Below the pieces are notes generated by a model. It was not told the origin of the DNA and made no database searches. It saw nothing but the letters and a program-made list of their open reading frames with translations. From a virus, in the IMG/VR virus record IMGVR_UViG_3300022707_005361, positions 1 to 27,934 of that record: a DNA stretch of 27,934 nucleotides; one strand, 5' to 3'. The stretch's first letter is position 1, and each line of letters begins with the position of its first letter. Of the stretch, positions 2,946 to 27,934 are shown in pieces. Made by a program: the position numbers and the translations under genes.

Positions 2946-2962
2946 ACGGAGACTGAATAATG
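2946..2962 (+). repeat. 17-bp direct repeat, copy 2
   Basis: Perfect second copy of the repeat at 2660-2676. Here it acts as ribosome binding site plus ATG for the 60-residue membrane protein. The frame leading into it also ends in codons for TETE and a stop, like the plug gene. The preceding noncoding stretch contains a small perfect stem, GTTTAC-GGG-GTAAAC, at 2923-2937. Confidence 0.85.
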
Positions 2963-3142
2963 CCTGTAGTACCACATCCAGCACCGAGGAAAAATGAAAC
3001 AGAAAGAGAATATACTTTAAGAATTATAGAATGGGCTGATAAAAATCATACAGGATACTTATTTAGCATAGTAGGAATAGCTGCTATCTTGGGTATAATA
3101 TCAATGTTGTATATCATATTTTATGACAGACTTCCTCTTTAA
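2960..3142 (+). CDS. Small single-span membrane protein
   Basis: 60 residues. It has a soluble, charged N-terminus of about 30 residues and one strongly hydrophobic segment (about 31-53, GYLFSIVGIAAILGIISMLY) followed by a short tail. It overlaps the hub start by 20 bases. Possible roles are holin-like, superinfection exclusion or another moron function. No endolysin is visible nearby, so a lysis role is unsupported. Function unknown. Confidence 0.55.
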   Translation: MPVVPHPAPRKNETEREYTLRIIEWADKNHTGYLFSIVGIAAILGIISMLYIIFYDRLPL

Positions 3143-5456: not shown

Positions 5457-6887
5457 ATGCCCATAATATTTAACGAAAACGGCCTTGTAATTCAATCTCT
5501 GGCTGAGATCAAAGAAGAGATTAAAAGTGGTTATACTGTGGATGGTGTTCCGAAAAAAGGATATATACAGCATTTCGGATTAGGCATTCAACTGGAGGAT
5601 GACACCGGTATAGGGAAGCAGATATCTATTAATGCAGAACGGGAACTGCTGCTGCAGGAAAAAATTGAAACTGTTAATGATTCGGCGTATAGGGCATCCG
5701 CAGGCGGAATATCATTGGATCGTACTCTGGAGGCTATTGAACTGCAACGGCAAGGGGGTTTGCCTTCAACTCTTATAGTCTATGCTGCCGGGACACCTTC
5801 AACTATTGTGACGGCTGAAGATTTAAATATGTCTGTGGATGGGACAGGCGCTTTATTCGTTAATCCGGCCGGATTTACTCTTGGTAGTCTGGTGGATGAA
5901 TCTGTGGATACTGTAACCCGTGTCAGTACTACTGTCACTGTAACTATCGGCGGCGGTCATTCTTTCCCATTGGACAGTTTTGTTTTCATAGAAGGCGCTG
6001 AACAGGATGAATATAATGGTCTACATGAGATTACAGCCATTACAGCCACTACTTTTGATTATGAATTAATCGGTATTCTGCCTGTTACCCCGGCTACCGG
6101 AACCATCATAACCAGAGAAGCAACACCTTTTAATGCTGAATCAGTAGAAAACGGGGCTATTCAGGCCCTTGACGGGGCTATCAATACTATTGCCACGGCT
6201 GTTCCCGGAATTGACCGGGTGGAGAATGCGGATGACGCTGCCTTAGGAAGATTAGGAGAAACTGACCCTGAAGTCAGAACCAGAGCGAATGAAAGTCTGG
6301 CTGTTCTCGGAGCGGCTACTACAGCAGCTATTCAATCTAAAGTATTAAATGTTCCAGGGGTGACCTTTGCTCAGGTATTTCAGAATGTGACGGACTTTGT
6401 GGACACTAACGGATTACCGCCTCATTCTATCCGGGTAGTGGTCTCCGGTGGCGATGATGATGATATTTTCAATACTCTTTTTCTGGATGCTGTTTCAGGC
6501 GGAATAAAGATGGATGGTACTGAAGAAACCACTATTATAGATAACGCCGGGGAACCCCAGCCTGTGGCTTTTTCACGACCTACTGCAGTACAGATTTTTG
6601 TCGATGCCGGAAACGGGCTGACAACGAATAGTGATATAAACCAGGGCGCTATCTTTCCTGCAAACGGTAGTGATCTGATTAAAGCGGCGCTTGTAGCTAT
6701 CCCGTTTCAGTTAGGAGCTGATGTCTGGCCATCATTAATTAAAGGAGCTATTGATTCAGTGGACGGTGTGATCACCAGTGATCCGGAGTTTGATATAACA
6801 CCATCTCCTACCAATAAGGCCACTATAATTATTTCATCTATTGAGCTGGCTGAAATTGACAGCGGAGATATTACAGGATTACCATGA
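5457..6887 (+). CDS. Baseplate J-like wedge protein
   Basis: 476 residues, a normal length for the baseplate J / gp47 / T4 gp6-like family that forms the ring binding tail fibres and triggering contraction. The family core is clear at about residues 222-285: PFNAESVENGAI, NTIATAVPGIDRVEN, DDAALGRLGETD, EVRTRANESL, then LNVPGVTFAQVF. An ASAGGISLDR motif lies near residue 81. A beta insertion at about 135-210 contains a SFPLDSFVFIEGAEQDEYNG stretch. Its last four bases overlap the next gene (ATGA). Bases 6122-6246 of this core are copied exactly, inverted, at 16120-16244. Confidence 0.85.
   Translation: MPIIFNENGLVIQSLAEIKEEIKSGYTVDGVPKKGYIQHFGLGIQLEDDTGIGKQISINAERELLLQEKIETVNDSAYRASAGGISLDRTLEAIELQRQGGLPSTLIVYAAGTPSTIVTAEDLNMSVDGTGALFVNPAGFTLGSLVDESVDTVTRVSTTVTVTIGGGHSFPLDSFVFIEGAEQDEYNGLHEITAITATTFDYELIGILPVTPATGTIITREATPFNAESVENGAIQALDGAINTIATAVPGIDRVENADDAALGRLGETDPEVRTRANESLAVLGAATTAAIQSKVLNVPGVTFAQVFQNVTDFVDTNGLPPHSIRVVVSGGDDDDIFNTLFLDAVSGGIKMDGTEETTIIDNAGEPQPVAFSRPTAVQIFVDAGNGLTTNSDINQGAIFPANGSDLIKAALVAIPFQLGADVWPSLIKGAIDSVDGVITSDPEFDITPSPTNKATIIISSIELAEIDSGDITGLP
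6122..6246 (+). repeat. 125-bp inverted duplicate, copy in baseplate J
   Basis: Read base by base, this segment is identical over 125 bp to the reverse complement of 16120-16244. It encodes baseplate J from Thr-Pro-Phe-Asn to Asp-Asp-Ala-Ala-Leu, the most conserved stretch of the family. Identity ends abruptly at both edges. Confidence 0.95.
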
Positions 6888-10722: not shown

Positions 10723-10940
10723 TCGCCCTCATCTATTATTACTTTCCTCTGTTCCCATTCAATGGCACCCCAAGGTGTTTTTTCATAGCAGGTATCGCAA
10801 ACCATTCCGCATTCCTCAATATCCAGTCCGTGTTCATCGGCCTCGGCTGTTGCCTCTTCCGGGCTCCATCCGAACTTAAAAATACCTTGGCACATTTCAC
10901 AACGGTATTCACCGGTTCCAGGTTGTTCGTTTTCACTCAT
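10719..10940 (-). CDS. Small zinc-finger-like phage protein
   Basis: 73 residues with two Cys pairs, YRCEMCQGIF near residue 12 and CGMVCDTCYE near residue 44, separated by an acidic segment (SPEEATAEADEHG). This resembles a widespread small phage protein pattern with a treble-clef-like zinc site. It overlaps its neighbours by one base upstream and four downstream, so it is tightly coupled to the exonuclease. Function unknown. Confidence 0.6.
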   Translation of the reverse strand: MSENEQPGTGEYRCEMCQGIFKFGWSPEEATAEADEHGLDIEECGMVCDTCYEKTPWGAIEWEQRKVIIDEGE

Positions 10941-11167
10941 TATTCAGCCTTTCTGAAGAAAGTCTGCTTATATGCCCACGCATCTAATTCCTGTATTTCT
11001 AATTCCATTACAGGTCCTTTTTTGTCGTTACTAAACTGTGTCCATAATATATTGAAAGACTGGTATAGTTTTTTGGCTGATGACACACGTCTTATTTCTT
11101 CTTTAGTAGCTGTCTGAGCAACTTCTAGATCAGCTATTTCCTCAGTTACTTGGCCCCATGTTTTCAT
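10940..11167 (-). CDS. Hypothetical helical protein
   Basis: 75 residues, largely alpha-helical with a likely N-terminal coiled coil (EEIADLEVAQTATKEEIRR). Its ATG overlaps the stop of the RHH gene upstream (ATGA). No family recognised. Second gene of the leftward recombination operon. Confidence 0.5.
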   Translation of the reverse strand: MKTWGQVTEEIADLEVAQTATKEEIRRVSSAKKLYQSFNILWTQFSNDKKGPVMELEIQELDAWAYKQTFFRKAE

Positions 11168-11340
11168 TCTGTTTTTCCTTTTAAGTACTGTTTAAAAAGA
11201 GTGGAATTTCTCACGTGTTCGTTGATAAAATCACTTTTCTGATGTTTAGCTGATAATATACTCAGGAACTCGTGAACATCTTTATCCACTACTATGGTTG
11301 ATCGTATTCTGTTATTGCTTTTTAAGTTAAAAGTTTTCAT
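11164..11340 (-). CDS. Ribbon-helix-helix regulator, first copy
   Basis: 58 residues. The pattern NRIRSTIVVDKDVHEFLSIL, then KSDFINEHVRN, is that of an RHH (CopG/Arc-like) fold: a short DNA-contacting beta strand followed by two helices. The product resembles the RHH gene at 16233-16433 (both read I.RS..VD.DV.EFL). It is the first gene of the 7.5-11.3 kb leftward operon, lies 30 bases from the proposed promoter, and overlaps the next ORF by ATGA. Autoregulation is likely by analogy. Confidence 0.6.
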   Translation of the reverse strand: MKTFNLKSNNRIRSTIVVDKDVHEFLSILSAKHQKSDFINEHVRNSTLFKQYLKGKTE

Positions 11341-15336: not shown

Positions 15337-15579
15337 TTAATGCCATACAATGTTATGAGCGGTTAATATTGCCTGTTTCTGAGTGCCCAATTCGTTCCAG
15401 GGTTTATTAATCATGTTCTCAGCTTCGGGAGTTAATTCACCGGTTACAGGATTTACAAACTCCTCACACATACCCAGGATGACTGTCCTCATCCATCTGT
15501 TTTCTTTATCCCAACGCAGAGACTCCGCTATCTCTGTTGTCTCCAGCATTGTGAATATATCCATCTGTCCCAGTTCCAT
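15337..15579 (-). CDS. Small hypothetical protein
   Basis: 80 residues from an ATG with GAGGAG upstream. WDKENRWMRTVILG, EEFVNPVTGELTPEAENM and a C-terminal ILTAHNIVWH are visible. No family recognised. Its first 74 bases lie inside the end of the preceding ORF in another frame, an unusually long overlap. Confidence 0.45.
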   Translation of the reverse strand: MELGQMDIFTMLETTEIAESLRWDKENRWMRTVILGMCEEFVNPVTGELTPEAENMINKPWNELGTQKQAILTAHNIVWH

Positions 15580-15856
15580 CCGACTCCTCCTCTATTACAG
15601 CAATGATATAAGCATGCTCACTGCGGTTTTTAAAATTAATTCTGTCCCATACACAGGGTGAATTCTCACCTAAATAAGCAGTATGATAATAATTCCATCC
15701 TTCCTTGGTTTTTCCTGCTATTACAACTCCAGGGCATTTAAACGGACTGTCTGATAATACCTTCTGCATCATCATTATTTCAGTCTCTATTCTCACTTTA
15801 TCCAGTCCGTGTTCCTTGATGAAGGATTTACGGAGTAATCGGGTTTTATAGCTCAT
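15506..15856 (-). CDS. Hypothetical protein
   Basis: 116 residues. Helical N-terminus (LLRKSFIKEHGLDKVRIETE) and a beta region (CPGVVIAGKTKEGWNYYHTA, HAYIIAVIEEE). The last 25 residues, over the overlap with the next gene, look unordered (DGTGTDGYIHNAGDNRDSG), so the real end may be shorter if an upstream indel exists. Function unknown. Confidence 0.45.
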   Translation of the reverse strand: MSYKTRLLRKSFIKEHGLDKVRIETEIMMMQKVLSDSPFKCPGVVIAGKTKEGWNYYHTAYLGENSPCVWDRINFKNRSEHAYIIAVIEEESDGTGTDGYIHNAGDNRDSGVSALG

Positions 15857-15880: not shown

Positions 15881-16258
15881 TTAAAGTTTTTTTAATTCTG
15901 CTTCCAATGCTTCCAATTCATCTTTTTTTACTTGAAGAGCATCAGCCAGCACATTTCTGACATCTTCATATGGGACGAAGGTAAGAGAATTAATAGTCAT
16001 ATGCCCTATTGTATAAGAGCCGGGATGATCTTGATGATCTTTAAGATTTATCAGGTTTTTAATGTCTCTTATTAATCTATTTAATGTGGTTATTTTACCT
16101 AATAATTTCTGGCCTTCAACTAAGGCAGCGTCATCCGCATTCTCCACCCGGTCAATTCCGGGAACAGCCGTGGCAATAGTATTGATAGCCCCGTCAAGGG
16201 CCTGAATAGCCCCGTTTTCTACTGATTCAGCATTAAAAGGTGTTTGTTCTTTTTTCAT
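15881..16258 (-). CDS. Small early protein with embedded baseplate J fragment
   Basis: 125 residues from ATG 16258, with GGAGGAG upstream. An ATG 18 bases earlier is also in frame but overlaps that binding site. Residues 1-5 are MKKEQ. About 6-46 are the baseplate J core (TPFNAESVENG ... ENADDAAL), from a 125-bp exact copy. The remainder (VEGQKLLGKITTLNRLIRDI ... KDELEALEAELKKL) is unrelated and ends in a coiled coil. The copy keeps baseplate J reading phase and carries the stop of the upstream RHH gene. The native gene before this event cannot be restored simply, since 125 is not a multiple of three. Function unknown. A decoy of baseplate assembly is a speculative possibility. Confidence 0.6.
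   Translation of the reverse strand: MKKEQTPFNAESVENGAIQALDGAINTIATAVPGIDRVENADDAALVEGQKLLGKITTLNRLIRDIKNLINLKDHQDHPGSYTIGHMTINSLTFVPYEDVRNVLADALQVKKDELEALEAELKKL
16120..16244 (-). repeat. 125-bp inverted duplicate, early-gene copy
   Basis: Perfect reverse complement of 6122-6246. Immediately outside, the flanks differ (the base before the match is A here and C in baseplate J; T against G after it). It covers the last codons and stop of the RHH gene and codons 6-46 of the next gene. Confidence 0.95.
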
Positions 16259-16433
16259 TTTTCTTCTCCTCCACATAGGTTTTAAAATCTTCAGTACTTC
16301 TGAAATACTCTACCACTAAAGGACTTATTTTGACTCCTTTTGTAGTTAAATACTGTAGAAACTCTTCAACGTCAGGATCAACAGTTATTGATCTTTTTAT
16401 CTTTGGCGCTTTCTTTTCAAAAAAACTACTCAT
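16233..16433 (-). CDS. Ribbon-helix-helix regulator, second copy
   Basis: 66 residues. IKRSITVDPDVEEFLQYLTT followed by ISPLVVEYFRS gives the same strand-helix-helix layout as the RHH gene at 11164-11340. First gene of the second leftward operon, with a TTGACA promoter upstream whose spacer holds a near-palindrome suited to autorepression. Its final codons (Asn-Thr-Phe-stop) come from the baseplate J duplicate, so the original C-terminus may have been different. Confidence 0.6.
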   Translation of the reverse strand: MSSFFEKKAPKIKRSITVDPDVEEFLQYLTTKGVKISPLVVEYFRSTEDFKTYVEEKKNEKRTNTF

Positions 16434-16475: not shown

Positions 16476-16503
16476 ACCATACTACTATATAGATAGTTGT
16501 CAA
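16476..16503 (-). promoter_or_regulatory. Sigma70-like promoter for leftward operon 2
   Basis: On the - strand TTGACA (16503-16498), a 16-base spacer and TATGGT (16481-16476) lie about 42 bases before the RHH ATG. The spacer contains CTATATAG flanked by ACTA and TAGT, a likely operator for a small dimeric regulator. Confidence 0.55.
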
Positions 16504-22902: not shown

Positions 22903-24126
22903 TTAAAATTCATCATCATTGAGTAATGATCCCCATTCAGAATGGACATCATCAAAATTATCATACTGCGTAAATAAAACATCAAACCTTTCTCTGAACA
23001 GTTTCCTATCCTCCTTAGATAGTGTTTTATAACCTCTTTTGAATTGATCGGGCTGTCTTTTATAAACCTCATCAAACCTTTCCTCGTTGGTACTCCCTTG
23101 ATAGAGTTTAAGGTCTGTTGCTTTGTCCTCTGCCTGCTGCTTGGCTTCGGTTTCTTTGTCTTCAGGCGCTTTGGACTTCAAAGTATCATCCATACTTGAT
23201 AATATCTGCTTAAGGTAAGCGCCGGAATTTTTGATAATTGAACCTTTTTTTTCGTTTTCTGCGATGATTTCCATGGCCTGTTCTATTTTTTCACCGGAGT
23301 ATGTCTTCCTCAAAGTCTCTATAGTTTTTTGAGGGACTTTAAACTCTTCCAGAACGGCTGTAATATTGTCTTTTTGGTATGGGATGGCTATTTTTTCTAT
23401 CGGTAGATTAAGGAACTTTTTATACTTGGGGTTTTTGGTAATATAAAAACTAATACTATTAATAGCCTGACCTTTTTTTTTTGTTTCTGATTTAATAAAA
23501 AGATCAGTCTGGTCATTCACTTCTTTAATAGCTGGTTGTACTACTCTGCGGTTGAAATCCCTATATTCTTTATATTTACCAGGGTCGATGCCGAAAAAAA
23601 TTCTTAAAACTGCAATACTTTTTTCAGGCGTTCGCCCTTTTTCAGGTATCTTGGTAATAGATGTTTTATAATCCCGGCATAATTCATAAAGCGCCCAGCC
23701 GTATTGTCCGCCTTTGTATTCCTTCTGAAGTTTTAAATTGATTTTAGCGTATAATGTTCTATCACTTAAAGCCGGGATTAATTCAGGCGCAAAGGAAAAA
23801 TAACATATTTTATTAAATTTGCCGATTCGTACTCCAGCCAGCAGGCTTAAACATCCCCATTCTTTTCTTTTGTCTTTTTCAAAAATATTATACTCAACAG
23901 ATGTGTCACGCAGGTTTTTAAGCATTATTTCTAGATTTTTAACACTATTAATACCTGGAACGTACTCTTTTAAAAGATCAATATTTACACTATGTATCGA
24001 TGTGGTTTTTAATTCATCAAAGGCCTCTGCAAGTAAAGCATTGAATAAATGCTGTTCCAAAAGGCTTATTTTATGGCTTATCTGTATAACGGCACTATGT
24101 TTAATCACGTCTTTTTTGGTAGTCAT
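22903..24126 (-). CDS. rep: Rep_3/RepB-family replication initiator
   Basis: 407 residues. Layout fits two winged-helix domains of the Rep_3 family: VIQISHKISLLEQHLFNALL at the N-terminus, FSFAPELIPALSDRTLYAKI in the first domain, YGWALYELCRDYK and SIAVLRIFFGIDPGKYKEYR in the second (dimer/iteron-binding region). The last 120 residues are a charged extension with a KGSIIKNSGAYLKQIL helix. Such proteins bind iterons and open the origin. A promoter with TTGACT lies at 24192-24220, five iterons just beyond it at 24241-24346, and ATG 24126 has a poor ribosome binding site. Autoregulation by iteron binding is expected but not shown. Confidence 0.8.
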   Translation of the reverse strand: MTTKKDVIKHSAVIQISHKISLLEQHLFNALLAEAFDELKTTSIHSVNIDLLKEYVPGINSVKNLEIMLKNLRDTSVEYNIFEKDKRKEWGCLSLLAGVRIGKFNKICYFSFAPELIPALSDRTLYAKINLKLQKEYKGGQYGWALYELCRDYKTSITKIPEKGRTPEKSIAVLRIFFGIDPGKYKEYRDFNRRVVQPAIKEVNDQTDLFIKSETKKKGQAINSISFYITKNPKYKKFLNLPIEKIAIPYQKDNITAVLEEFKVPQKTIETLRKTYSGEKIEQAMEIIAENEKKGSIIKNSGAYLKQILSSMDDTLKSKAPEDKETEAKQQAEDKATDLKLYQGSTNEERFDEVYKRQPDQFKRGYKTLSKEDRKLFRERFDVLFTQYDNFDDVHSEWGSLLNDDEF

Positions 24127-24191
24127 AGTTATTATTTTTATGGAGACTGTTAATTGTTAGGGTTAAAGTATTTTTGTTTTCTGATAAAAAT

Positions 24192-24220
24192 AAGGTACTT
24201 TTTAGTGTGGCAAAAGTCAA
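24192..24220 (-). promoter_or_regulatory. Promoter of rep
   Basis: On the - strand TTGACT (24220-24215), a 17-base spacer and TACCTT (24197-24192). It lies 66 bases upstream of the rep ATG and 20 bases from the first iteron. Confidence 0.5.
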
Positions 24221-24240
24221 GTTAATTTTGTCACAACCCT

Positions 24241-24346
24241 ACAGAAATCTGTCCACCGCTTTACAGAAATCTGTCCACCGCTTTACAGAAATCTGTCCAC
24301 CGCTAACAGAAATCTGTCCACCGCTAACAGAAATCTGTCCACCGCT
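24241..24346 (+). repeat. Five origin iterons
   Basis: Five perfect copies of the 20-base unit ACAGAAATCTGTCCACCGCT start at 24241, 24263, 24285, 24306 and 24327, spaced 22, 22, 21 and 21 bases. Each contains a small dyad (ACAGA..TCTGT). Spacing near two helical turns places initiator monomers on one face. AT-rich DNA (24347-24540) follows, a likely melting region. This is the plasmid origin, adjacent to rep. Confidence 0.9.
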
Positions 24347-24851
24347 ACTTTTTTTATCCCTTACCCACTATGCTTTTGCTATACCCCTAAAACTCTTAAA
24401 GCTCTTAAAAGTAATAAAAGGGTTTTTAAACGTGAAAAAATCAGAAAAAGGCGCAAAATTACAAAATTCTGCCTTTAAAAAGTGGTTGTTGTTCTTATAA
24501 TAAATTATTTTATTTGTTTTTCTATTGGAATAAAAAGAAAGGGAAAAACAGGATCGTAAATGGAAATGTGAGAAGAAGACTGAATGAGAAATTTGCGCCG
24601 GGATTTTAACCGTGGTGGTATCACCACAGTTCAATGTTAAAGCTAGAACGGGAATTCCCCTTTCGGTATAATTTCAATAGGTTAGTATTTTTTTGTTGTT
24701 CGCGAGACTTCGATAGAATACGAAACAACCATTTAACCAATATTGACAATACTTTCCAGGTTTTTCCTATTGAAAAAGGCTTTTGGCGGAAATATTCGAA
24801 AGCCTTACAGAGTAAGAATTTGGAATATTTTTCCGGTTTTAACCGTCGCGA

Positions 24852-24960
24852 TATCACAACAGTTGTTTCCATTTTGGAAATAGTTGATGTTTCTGGGTAC
24901 TCGAATTCGAGTAGTCTAACACCGAATTCGGTTTTTTTGTTTTCAGAATGGATCCGGGTA
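24852..24960 (+). repeat. Long inverted repeat, left copy (at least 109 bp)
   Basis: Identical over 109 bp to the reverse complement of 27826-27934. At 24960/27826 identity stops abruptly. The other end cannot be bounded because the window ends. It contains the 16-bp and 12-bp GAATTC-centred palindromes. Confidence 0.95.
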
Positions 24961-25009
24961 TGGTCCGTACTGCAGAACAGCATTAGAATTCAATGTTTAT
25001 AAGTATTTG

Positions 25010-25037
25010 ACAGTTGTAGGGGTATCCCTACAACTGT
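25010..25037. other. 12-bp perfect stem-loop
   Basis: ACAGTTGTAGGG, loop GTAT, CCCTACAACTGT. No T tract follows. The GTAT loop matches that of the shorter stem at 24612-24627. Confidence 0.6.
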
Positions 25038-25062
25038 TTCGCAGAAAAATTAATATCCTTTG

Positions 25063-25086
25063 TCAGTAAGGGATTACTGATTTTTT
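25063..25086 (+). terminator. Terminator-like hairpin
   Basis: TCAGTAA-GGGA-TTACTGA followed by six T gives a rho-independent-type signal for + strand transcription, although the stem is AT-rich. No + strand gene lies directly upstream, so it might end a short RNA from this noncoding region. Confidence 0.4.
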
Positions 25087-25157
25087 AGAAATTTAGGGAT
25101 CCGATATGGTCCGGAGAATTCGAACTGTTAGATATTTTCGAATAGTTGGAAAGGAGA

Positions 25158-25181
25158 AAGCCCGGGTTTAATTCCGGGCTT
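25158..25181. other. GC-rich hairpin
   Basis: AAGCCCGG, eight-base loop, CCGGGCTT, a perfect eight-base stem in the noncoding region. It could end transcription or form a protein site. No clear T tract on either strand. Confidence 0.4.
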
Positions 25182-25435
25182 CCGGTTTAAGGAGAGTGAT
25201 ACATTAAAGAAGAAAATCTGCTCGTGGATAATTAAAGCATTACCCGATTCTCTTTTTAATTAAATTAGTAATTATGGGTATATAATAGCAGGATTCGGCT
25301 ACAAAGAGCAAATCGGTGATTTTATTTTTAAAACTGTTGTAAAAATACATTCCTTTATTTAGAATACTAAGAGATTTAAGAAACCGCACAACTTGTGTAT
25401 GTTGAAATGGGGATGAAATATTTACGGAGATCTGA

Positions 25436-26116
25436 ATGAAGAAAATGCTGCTTTTTATCGGAATAATGCTGTTGATCAACTCTACCGTCTGGGCCGCAGA
25501 AGGCGCTATAACCCGTTTCGGGAACTGGCTGGATGGTACCGGACAAACATGTACTGAATGCCCTACCTGTCCCATCGGTTCGGAAGGTGTGATCTGTCCC
25601 GATACCCCGGTTGAAGATGTGAAAAGAGCGCCTTATGAAATAGGAATCCGCAGTGATGTTTTTGTCACTCCTACCGGCGGGCCGGCTCAATTCCACATTG
25701 ATAATTTCACTCTTCAGTTCAAACATAATTATTCCAGAGTTTTCAATGTCTATGCCAGTTACAGTTCAGCCACTATTGAAAAAACCGAATATGATAATTC
25801 GCTTTACGATAAAACATGGCATTATCAGACGATTGTAGCGGGAATAGGTTGGTATATTCATCCTATTTTTGAACTGTTTGTCGGAATAGGTAAAATAGAC
25901 GCTCAGAATTCGGAAGGTTCTGAAGAGTTGGGAATAGTTCTGGAACGTGGGTTAAGGGCGCATTGGGCTTTAAATAATCTGGGGTATAAAATCAATATAG
26001 CCTTGATCAGCCGTGAGATACCTTTAGCTGATGAGGGAGTGGACATCAACAGAAGTCCTGCTGTTGCGACACATACCAGCATCAGCGTCGGGATAGATAT
26101 TCCGATAGGATGGTAG
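25436..26116 (+). CDS. Outer-membrane barrel-like protein (cargo)
   Basis: 226 residues. A signal peptide (MKKMLLFIGIMLLI ... VWAAEG, cleavage near residue 21) is followed by a Cys-rich linker (CTECPTCPIGSEGVICPD) and a beta body with alternating hydrophobic/aromatic strands (VFNVYASYSSATIEKTEY, YQTIVAGIGWYIHPIFELF) ending in a terminal aromatic (IGW), the outer-membrane barrel signature. GGAG lies eight bases before the ATG. The short length suggests an eight-stranded barrel. As an isolated + gene inside the inverted-repeat-flanked segment it is likely host-modifying cargo. Exact family unknown. Confidence 0.6.
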   Translation: MKKMLLFIGIMLLINSTVWAAEGAITRFGNWLDGTGQTCTECPTCPIGSEGVICPDTPVEDVKRAPYEIGIRSDVFVTPTGGPAQFHIDNFTLQFKHNYSRVFNVYASYSSATIEKTEYDNSLYDKTWHYQTIVAGIGWYIHPIFELFVGIGKIDAQNSEGSEELGIVLERGLRAHWALNNLGYKINIALISREIPLADEGVDINRSPAVATHTSISVGIDIPIGW

Positions 26117-27353: not shown

Positions 27354-27399
27354 AGCCTAGTCAGGAAATGACACCTAGCCTAGTCAGGAAATGACATCT
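27354..27399 (+). repeat. Two tandem 23-base repeats
   Basis: AGCCTAGTCAGGAAATGACA followed by CCT, then a second copy ending TCT in place of CCT. It overlaps the last codons of the gene at 27384-27653, so the gene's end may have been shaped by the duplication. Confidence 0.75.
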
Positions 27400-27825: not shown

Positions 27826-27934
27826 TACCCGGATCCATTCTGAAAACAAAAAAACCGAATTCGGTGTTAGACTACTCGAATTCGAGTACCCAGAAACATC
27901 AACTATTTCCAAAATGGAAACAACTGTTGTGATA
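27826..27934 (-). repeat. Long inverted repeat, right copy (runs off window)
   Basis: Perfect inverted copy of 24852-24960 over all 109 bases visible. The two copies enclose 25-27.8 kb, including the barrel gene, the zinc-finger regulator and small ORFs. Confidence 0.95.

What the first reader, a model, noticed from the sequence alone, without database searches (positions are those of the whole stretch)
16120..16244. Perfect inverted copy of the baseplate J core embedded in a small early gene
Bases 16120-16244 are an exact reverse complement of 6122-6246 (125/125). The copied piece is the most conserved part of baseplate J and keeps its reading phase, forming residues about 6-46 of a 125-residue protein. 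That protein is the second gene of an operon controlled by an RHH regulator, whose own stop codon lies inside the copy. No synonymous change has accumulated, so the event is recent or the copies are kept equal by gene conversion. Hypotheses: a decoy baseplate fragment that interferes with tail assembly of this or a related phage; or homology for DNA inversion.
Basis: partly seen in the sequence, partly recalled or inferred. Interest (0 to 1): 0.8.

Follow-up and report, generated by a model that had tools for sequence, protein, structure and literature searches.

The report
Tail-gene fragment pasted into another gene
A 125-base piece of a phage tail (baseplate) gene has been copied, exactly and in the opposite direction, into the front of an unrelated small gene; this looks like a recent accidental copying event (or possibly a laboratory chimera) rather than a decoy or a genetic switch.

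Summary
In detail: window 6122-6246 (baseplate J gene, +) equals the reverse complement of 16120-16244, 125/125. The copy forms residues 6-46 of a 125-residue open reading frame and supplies the stop codon of the gene upstream. The one relative found (IMGVR_UViG_3300022690_002056, J 84% identical) lacks both the second copy and the whole small gene: there the RHH-like gene runs straight into the next gene. No homology continues past the copy's edges. Best reading: one recent templated (ectopic) insertion of about 125 nt of J into the 5' end of a small operon gene, with the frame kept by chance or selection. The decoy idea has no positive evidence. The inversion idea is disfavoured: flipping truncates J, and the relative has the same orientation with no repeat. 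Caution: the contig holds a second exact inverted repeat (109 nt) whose outer arm is the last 109 bases of the contig, as a chimeric end would look; six reference phage stretches and the relative have no exact inverted match over 24 nt apart from one low-complexity stretch. A library chimera stays a serious rival (about 25%). Read mapping would decide. Interest is low to moderate.

The parts
6122..6246 (+). donor copy: 125 nt inside the baseplate J gene (residues 223-263)
   Evidence: exact match to the reverse complement of 16120-16244
5457..6887 (+). baseplate J / wedge protein gene, 476 aa, intact
   Evidence: PHROG 6 baseplate wedge subunit 2e-29; solved wedge proteins 4e-24; 84% identical full-length homologue in relative
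16120..16244 (-). second copy of the 125 nt, in J's reading frame
   Evidence: absent from relative G001
15881..16258 (-). small chimeric ORF, 125 aa: MKKEQ + 41 aa of J + 79 aa without known relatives (predicted helix - two short strands - helix)
   Evidence: no relatives in phages, plasmids or viral contigs; whole gene missing in G001
16233..16433 (-). upstream RHH-like small gene, 66 aa; its TAA stop lies in the copy
   Evidence: 37% identical homologue in G001 at the same place; RHH by eye only
15506..15856 (-). next gene downstream, 116 aa; in G001 its homologue follows the RHH-like gene directly (ATGA overlap)
16476..16503 (-). promoter-like site TTGACA-16-TATGGT upstream of the RHH-like gene
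   Evidence: a consensus match only

Best explanation
A single recent ectopic templated insertion. During replication or repair of the phage (or phage-plasmid) DNA, a strand being made at the 5' end of a small minus-strand operon gene switched template onto the baseplate J gene about 9.9 kb away, copied about 125 nt of it, and switched back. Because J lies on the other strand, the copy is inverted on the map but reads in J's sense in the small gene. The start codon and Shine-Dalgarno site of the small gene were kept and the insert is in frame, so the product is probably the old small protein with a 41-residue N-terminal insert. The fragment most likely has no baseplate-related function. Shown: exact copy, sharp edges, intact ORF, absence in the relative. 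Inferred: template switching, near-neutrality, and that the small gene existed before the insert.
For: Exact 125-nt identity. No homology beyond the edges: anchored alignments of 60-nt flanks score like shuffles, fraction of shuffles as good 0.23-0.64. The relative has J in the same place (84% aa), no second copy, and no small gene between the RHH-like gene and the next gene. The copy differs from its new host gene in composition: GC 0.51 against 0.32 for the rest of the small gene, GC3 0.41 against 0.23. Similarity at the edges is at most a few bases (GAA..AACACC; CTTC..CTAAGG). The genome encodes RecT (Pfam E 1.6e-6) and SSB, which act on single strands. Templated, often inverted, insertions with microhomology are documented in yeast (PMC11724301).
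Against: One contig only, without reads. No relative carries the small gene without the insert, so the pre-insertion state is not seen. The frame being kept at both edges has a chance of only about 1 in 9 if nothing selected for it. Two exact inverted repeats in one 28-kb contig is more than expected from a rare accident.
Confidence: 0.6

Rival explanations
1. The second copy is a library or amplification chimera (inverted template switching, as in multiple displacement amplification) that entered the metagenome contig.
For: MDA chimeras are inverted in 85% of cases, mostly between sites under 10 kb apart and joined at short complementary stretches (PMC1855051); the two copies are 9.87 kb apart and inverted. 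The same contig ends in another exact inverted repeat, 24852-24960 against 27826-27934, the last 109 bases, as a chimeric end would look. Apart from one low-complexity stretch (L015), the longest exact inverted match in the relative and six phage stretches is 24 nt.
Against: A patch needs two switches 125 nt apart with return to the same locus, and must win over normal reads. Gene order outside the copy is conserved with the relative on both sides, and the ORF, start codon and SD are intact. How the library was made is unknown here.
Confidence: 0.25
2. A real domesticated fragment: the small early protein carries a J peptide as a decoy or assembly regulator that interferes with baseplate assembly of this or competing phages.
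For: Intact in-frame ORF in an apparent operon with a promoter-like site and SD.
Against: The fragment is a short internal piece of a large wedge protein; no other contig was found to carry it; zero divergence leaves no trace of selection; the relative does without the gene altogether. The J fold prediction failed (mean pLDDT 28), so its structural role could not be tested.
Confidence: 0.05
3. The inverted repeat serves as homology for a reversible inversion of the 9.9-kb segment between J and the early operon.
For: 125 bp of perfect inverted identity is enough for homologous recombination in principle (general knowledge).
Against: The flipped isomer replaces J by a 342-aa fusion and puts J's second half behind the small gene's start, which should abolish tails; the relative has the same orientation with no repeat.
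Confidence: 0.03
4. An older partial duplicate of J kept identical by gene conversion.
For: Perfect identity would fit; the copy is in J's frame.
Against: No residual homology beyond the edges; no diverged copy in the relative.
Confidence: 0.05

Closest known systems
Templated (often inverted) insertions by microhomology-mediated template switching, e.g. at yeast double-strand breaks (PMC11724301)
   Same: a short segment of the same genome inserted elsewhere with sharp edges and little homology
   Different: most inverted insertions described there are 5-34 bp foldbacks; here 125 nt from 9.9 kb away, in a phage, and in frame
Inverted chimeras of multiple displacement amplification (PMC1855051)
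   Same: inverted joining of sites under 10 kb apart, microhomology at junctions
   Different: those are single junctions; here two junctions return to the same locus
Phage baseplate wedge protein J (PHROG 6)
   Same: the donor gene is a normal member
   Different: the small ORF carries only 41 residues of it

Membership tests
Baseplate J / wedge protein (donor gene 5457-6887) | match to a baseplate wedge family over most of the protein | tested here: met
   PHROG 6, 2.2e-29, residues 4-473; solved wedge proteins 4e-24
Baseplate J / wedge protein (small ORF 15881-16258) | contains the J domain rather than a fragment | tested here: not met
   only 41 of 476 residues; no family hit
Templated insertion by template switching | exact copy of a distant same-genome segment with sharp edges | tested here: met
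Templated insertion by template switching | the pre-insertion allele exists | tested here: inconclusive
   the relative lacks the copy but also lacks the whole small gene
Templated insertion by template switching | microhomology at both junctions | tested here: inconclusive
   a few bases with offsets only; the pre-insertion sequence is unknown
Programmed DNA inversion system | both orientations give useful products | tested here: not met
   the isomer truncates J; the relative has no repeat
MDA or library chimera | junction supported by a minority of reads | not testable with these tools
   no reads available
RHH regulator (16233-16433) | match to an RHH family model | tested here: not met
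   no significant hit in Pfam, PHROGs or NCBIfam

The most novel reading that the evidence does not exclude
A phage that has turned a piece of its own tail wedge protein into an early-expressed regulator or decoy by copying it, in frame, into a small operon gene.
Probability: 0.05. Interest if true: 0.7.

Novelty: new member of a known kind. Interest (0 to 1): 0.25.

Why it matters
If real, it is a clean and very young example of how a phage gene gains a new coding segment from elsewhere in the same genome, caught before any mutation blurred it. If it is a chimera, it is a warning that inverted repeats in metagenomic virus contigs need read support before functions are proposed.

Tried and rejected
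Searches for other relatives of J, a conserved tail protein, the small ORF, its C-terminal part and the RHH-like protein gave only the one relative contig and none in genome contigs. The pattern was by mistake specific to the relative's codons; one search repeated it in a general form. Residual homology around the copy was tested and rejected. A structural reading of the fragment failed: the J model has pLDDT 28 and the small-protein model is only moderate (pLDDT 61). Antisense regulation was rejected: both copies read in the same sense in their transcripts. No Rfam family in the window. Literature searches for phage cases found nothing direct.

Full report
What was checked. The window is a 27,934-base linear IMG/VR virus record. 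Bases 6122-6246 on the plus strand equal the reverse complement of 16120-16244 at all 125 positions; outside, the match stops sharply, with two mismatches in the next six bases on one side. A repeat of this length is not chance.

Anatomy. The donor lies inside an intact 476-codon gene (5457-6887) that is a baseplate wedge (J-type) protein by PHROG 6 and by solved wedge proteins. The second copy lies on the minus strand near the start of a small ORF: ATG at 16258, a GGAGGAG ribosome-binding-like site just before it, five own codons, 41 codons of J in J's frame, then 79 codons with no known relative. The other forward frames of the copy contain stops, so the ORF depends on the frame being kept. 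The upstream gene (66 aa, RHH-like by eye but matching no family model) ends at a TAA inside the copy. A promoter-like site lies upstream of it.

The relative. The only related contig found is IMGVR_UViG_3300022690_002056 (46,806 bases). It is collinear with the window over most of the window's length. Its J is 84% identical; the 125-nt segment is about 81% identical in DNA. It has no second copy of the segment. At the corresponding operon its RHH-like gene (37% identical) overlaps the start of the next gene directly; the small gene is missing altogether. So either the window lineage gained the small gene or the relative lost it, and the J copy arose (or was made) after the two split. With no differences in 125 nt the copies are at most about 2.4% diverged (95% bound, my arithmetic), far less than the roughly 19% between the two phages.

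Mechanism. There is no remaining homology around the copy, which argues against an old duplicate kept identical by gene conversion. Composition shows a foreign patch: GC 0.51 against 0.32 in the rest of the small gene. The simplest reading is one templated insertion by template switching; the phage encodes RecT and SSB. Similar templated insertions, often inverted, are known from yeast break repair (PMC11724301). Keeping the frame at both edges has a chance of about 1 in 9 under no selection, so it is weak evidence for retention of the protein.

Why an artefact stays open. The same contig has a second exact inverted repeat of 109 nt whose outer arm is the very end of the contig. Apart from one low-complexity stretch in a partial genome (L015), the relative and six other phage stretches have no exact inverted match longer than 24 nt. 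Inverted chimeras between sites under 10 kb apart are the main product of amplification template switching (PMC1855051). Against this, the copy needs two switches and a return to the same locus, and de Bruijn assemblers do not invent junctions that no read carries (general knowledge). I put the artefact at about 25%.

Function. A decoy or assembly regulator is not excluded but has no positive evidence. An inversion switch is disfavoured: the flipped form turns J into a 342-residue fusion, and the relative has the same order without repeats. Structure prediction did not help.

Verdict. It is an ordinary kind of event, neatly preserved, if it is real.

Noticed in passing
24852-24960 and 27826-27934: Second exact inverted repeat, 109 nt, whose outer arm is the last 109 bases of the contig; possible chimeric end or a true repeat that broke the assembly.
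   Followed up: partly
24537-25498: Stretch about 0.7 kb longer than in the relative, rich in hairpins (24580-25060 folds 4.7 sd better than shuffles), with palindromes such as TACTCGAATTCGAGTA; no match in plasmids. Nature unknown.
   Followed up: partly
22903-24347: Rep_3-type plasmid initiator with five 22-bp iteron-like repeats at 24240-24347; the relative also has the gene and tandem repeats there: probably a phage-plasmid.
   Followed up: partly
10940-11340: Another small RHH-like gene overlapping a small downstream gene, the same layout as the operon at 15881-16433.
   Followed up: no
27354-27399: Two tandem copies of a 23-bp unit AGCCTAGTCAGGAAATGACACCT.
   Followed up: no
2956-3050 against relative 23826-23920: A small gene piece (86% identical) sits at a different place and in the opposite orientation in the relative.
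   Followed up: no
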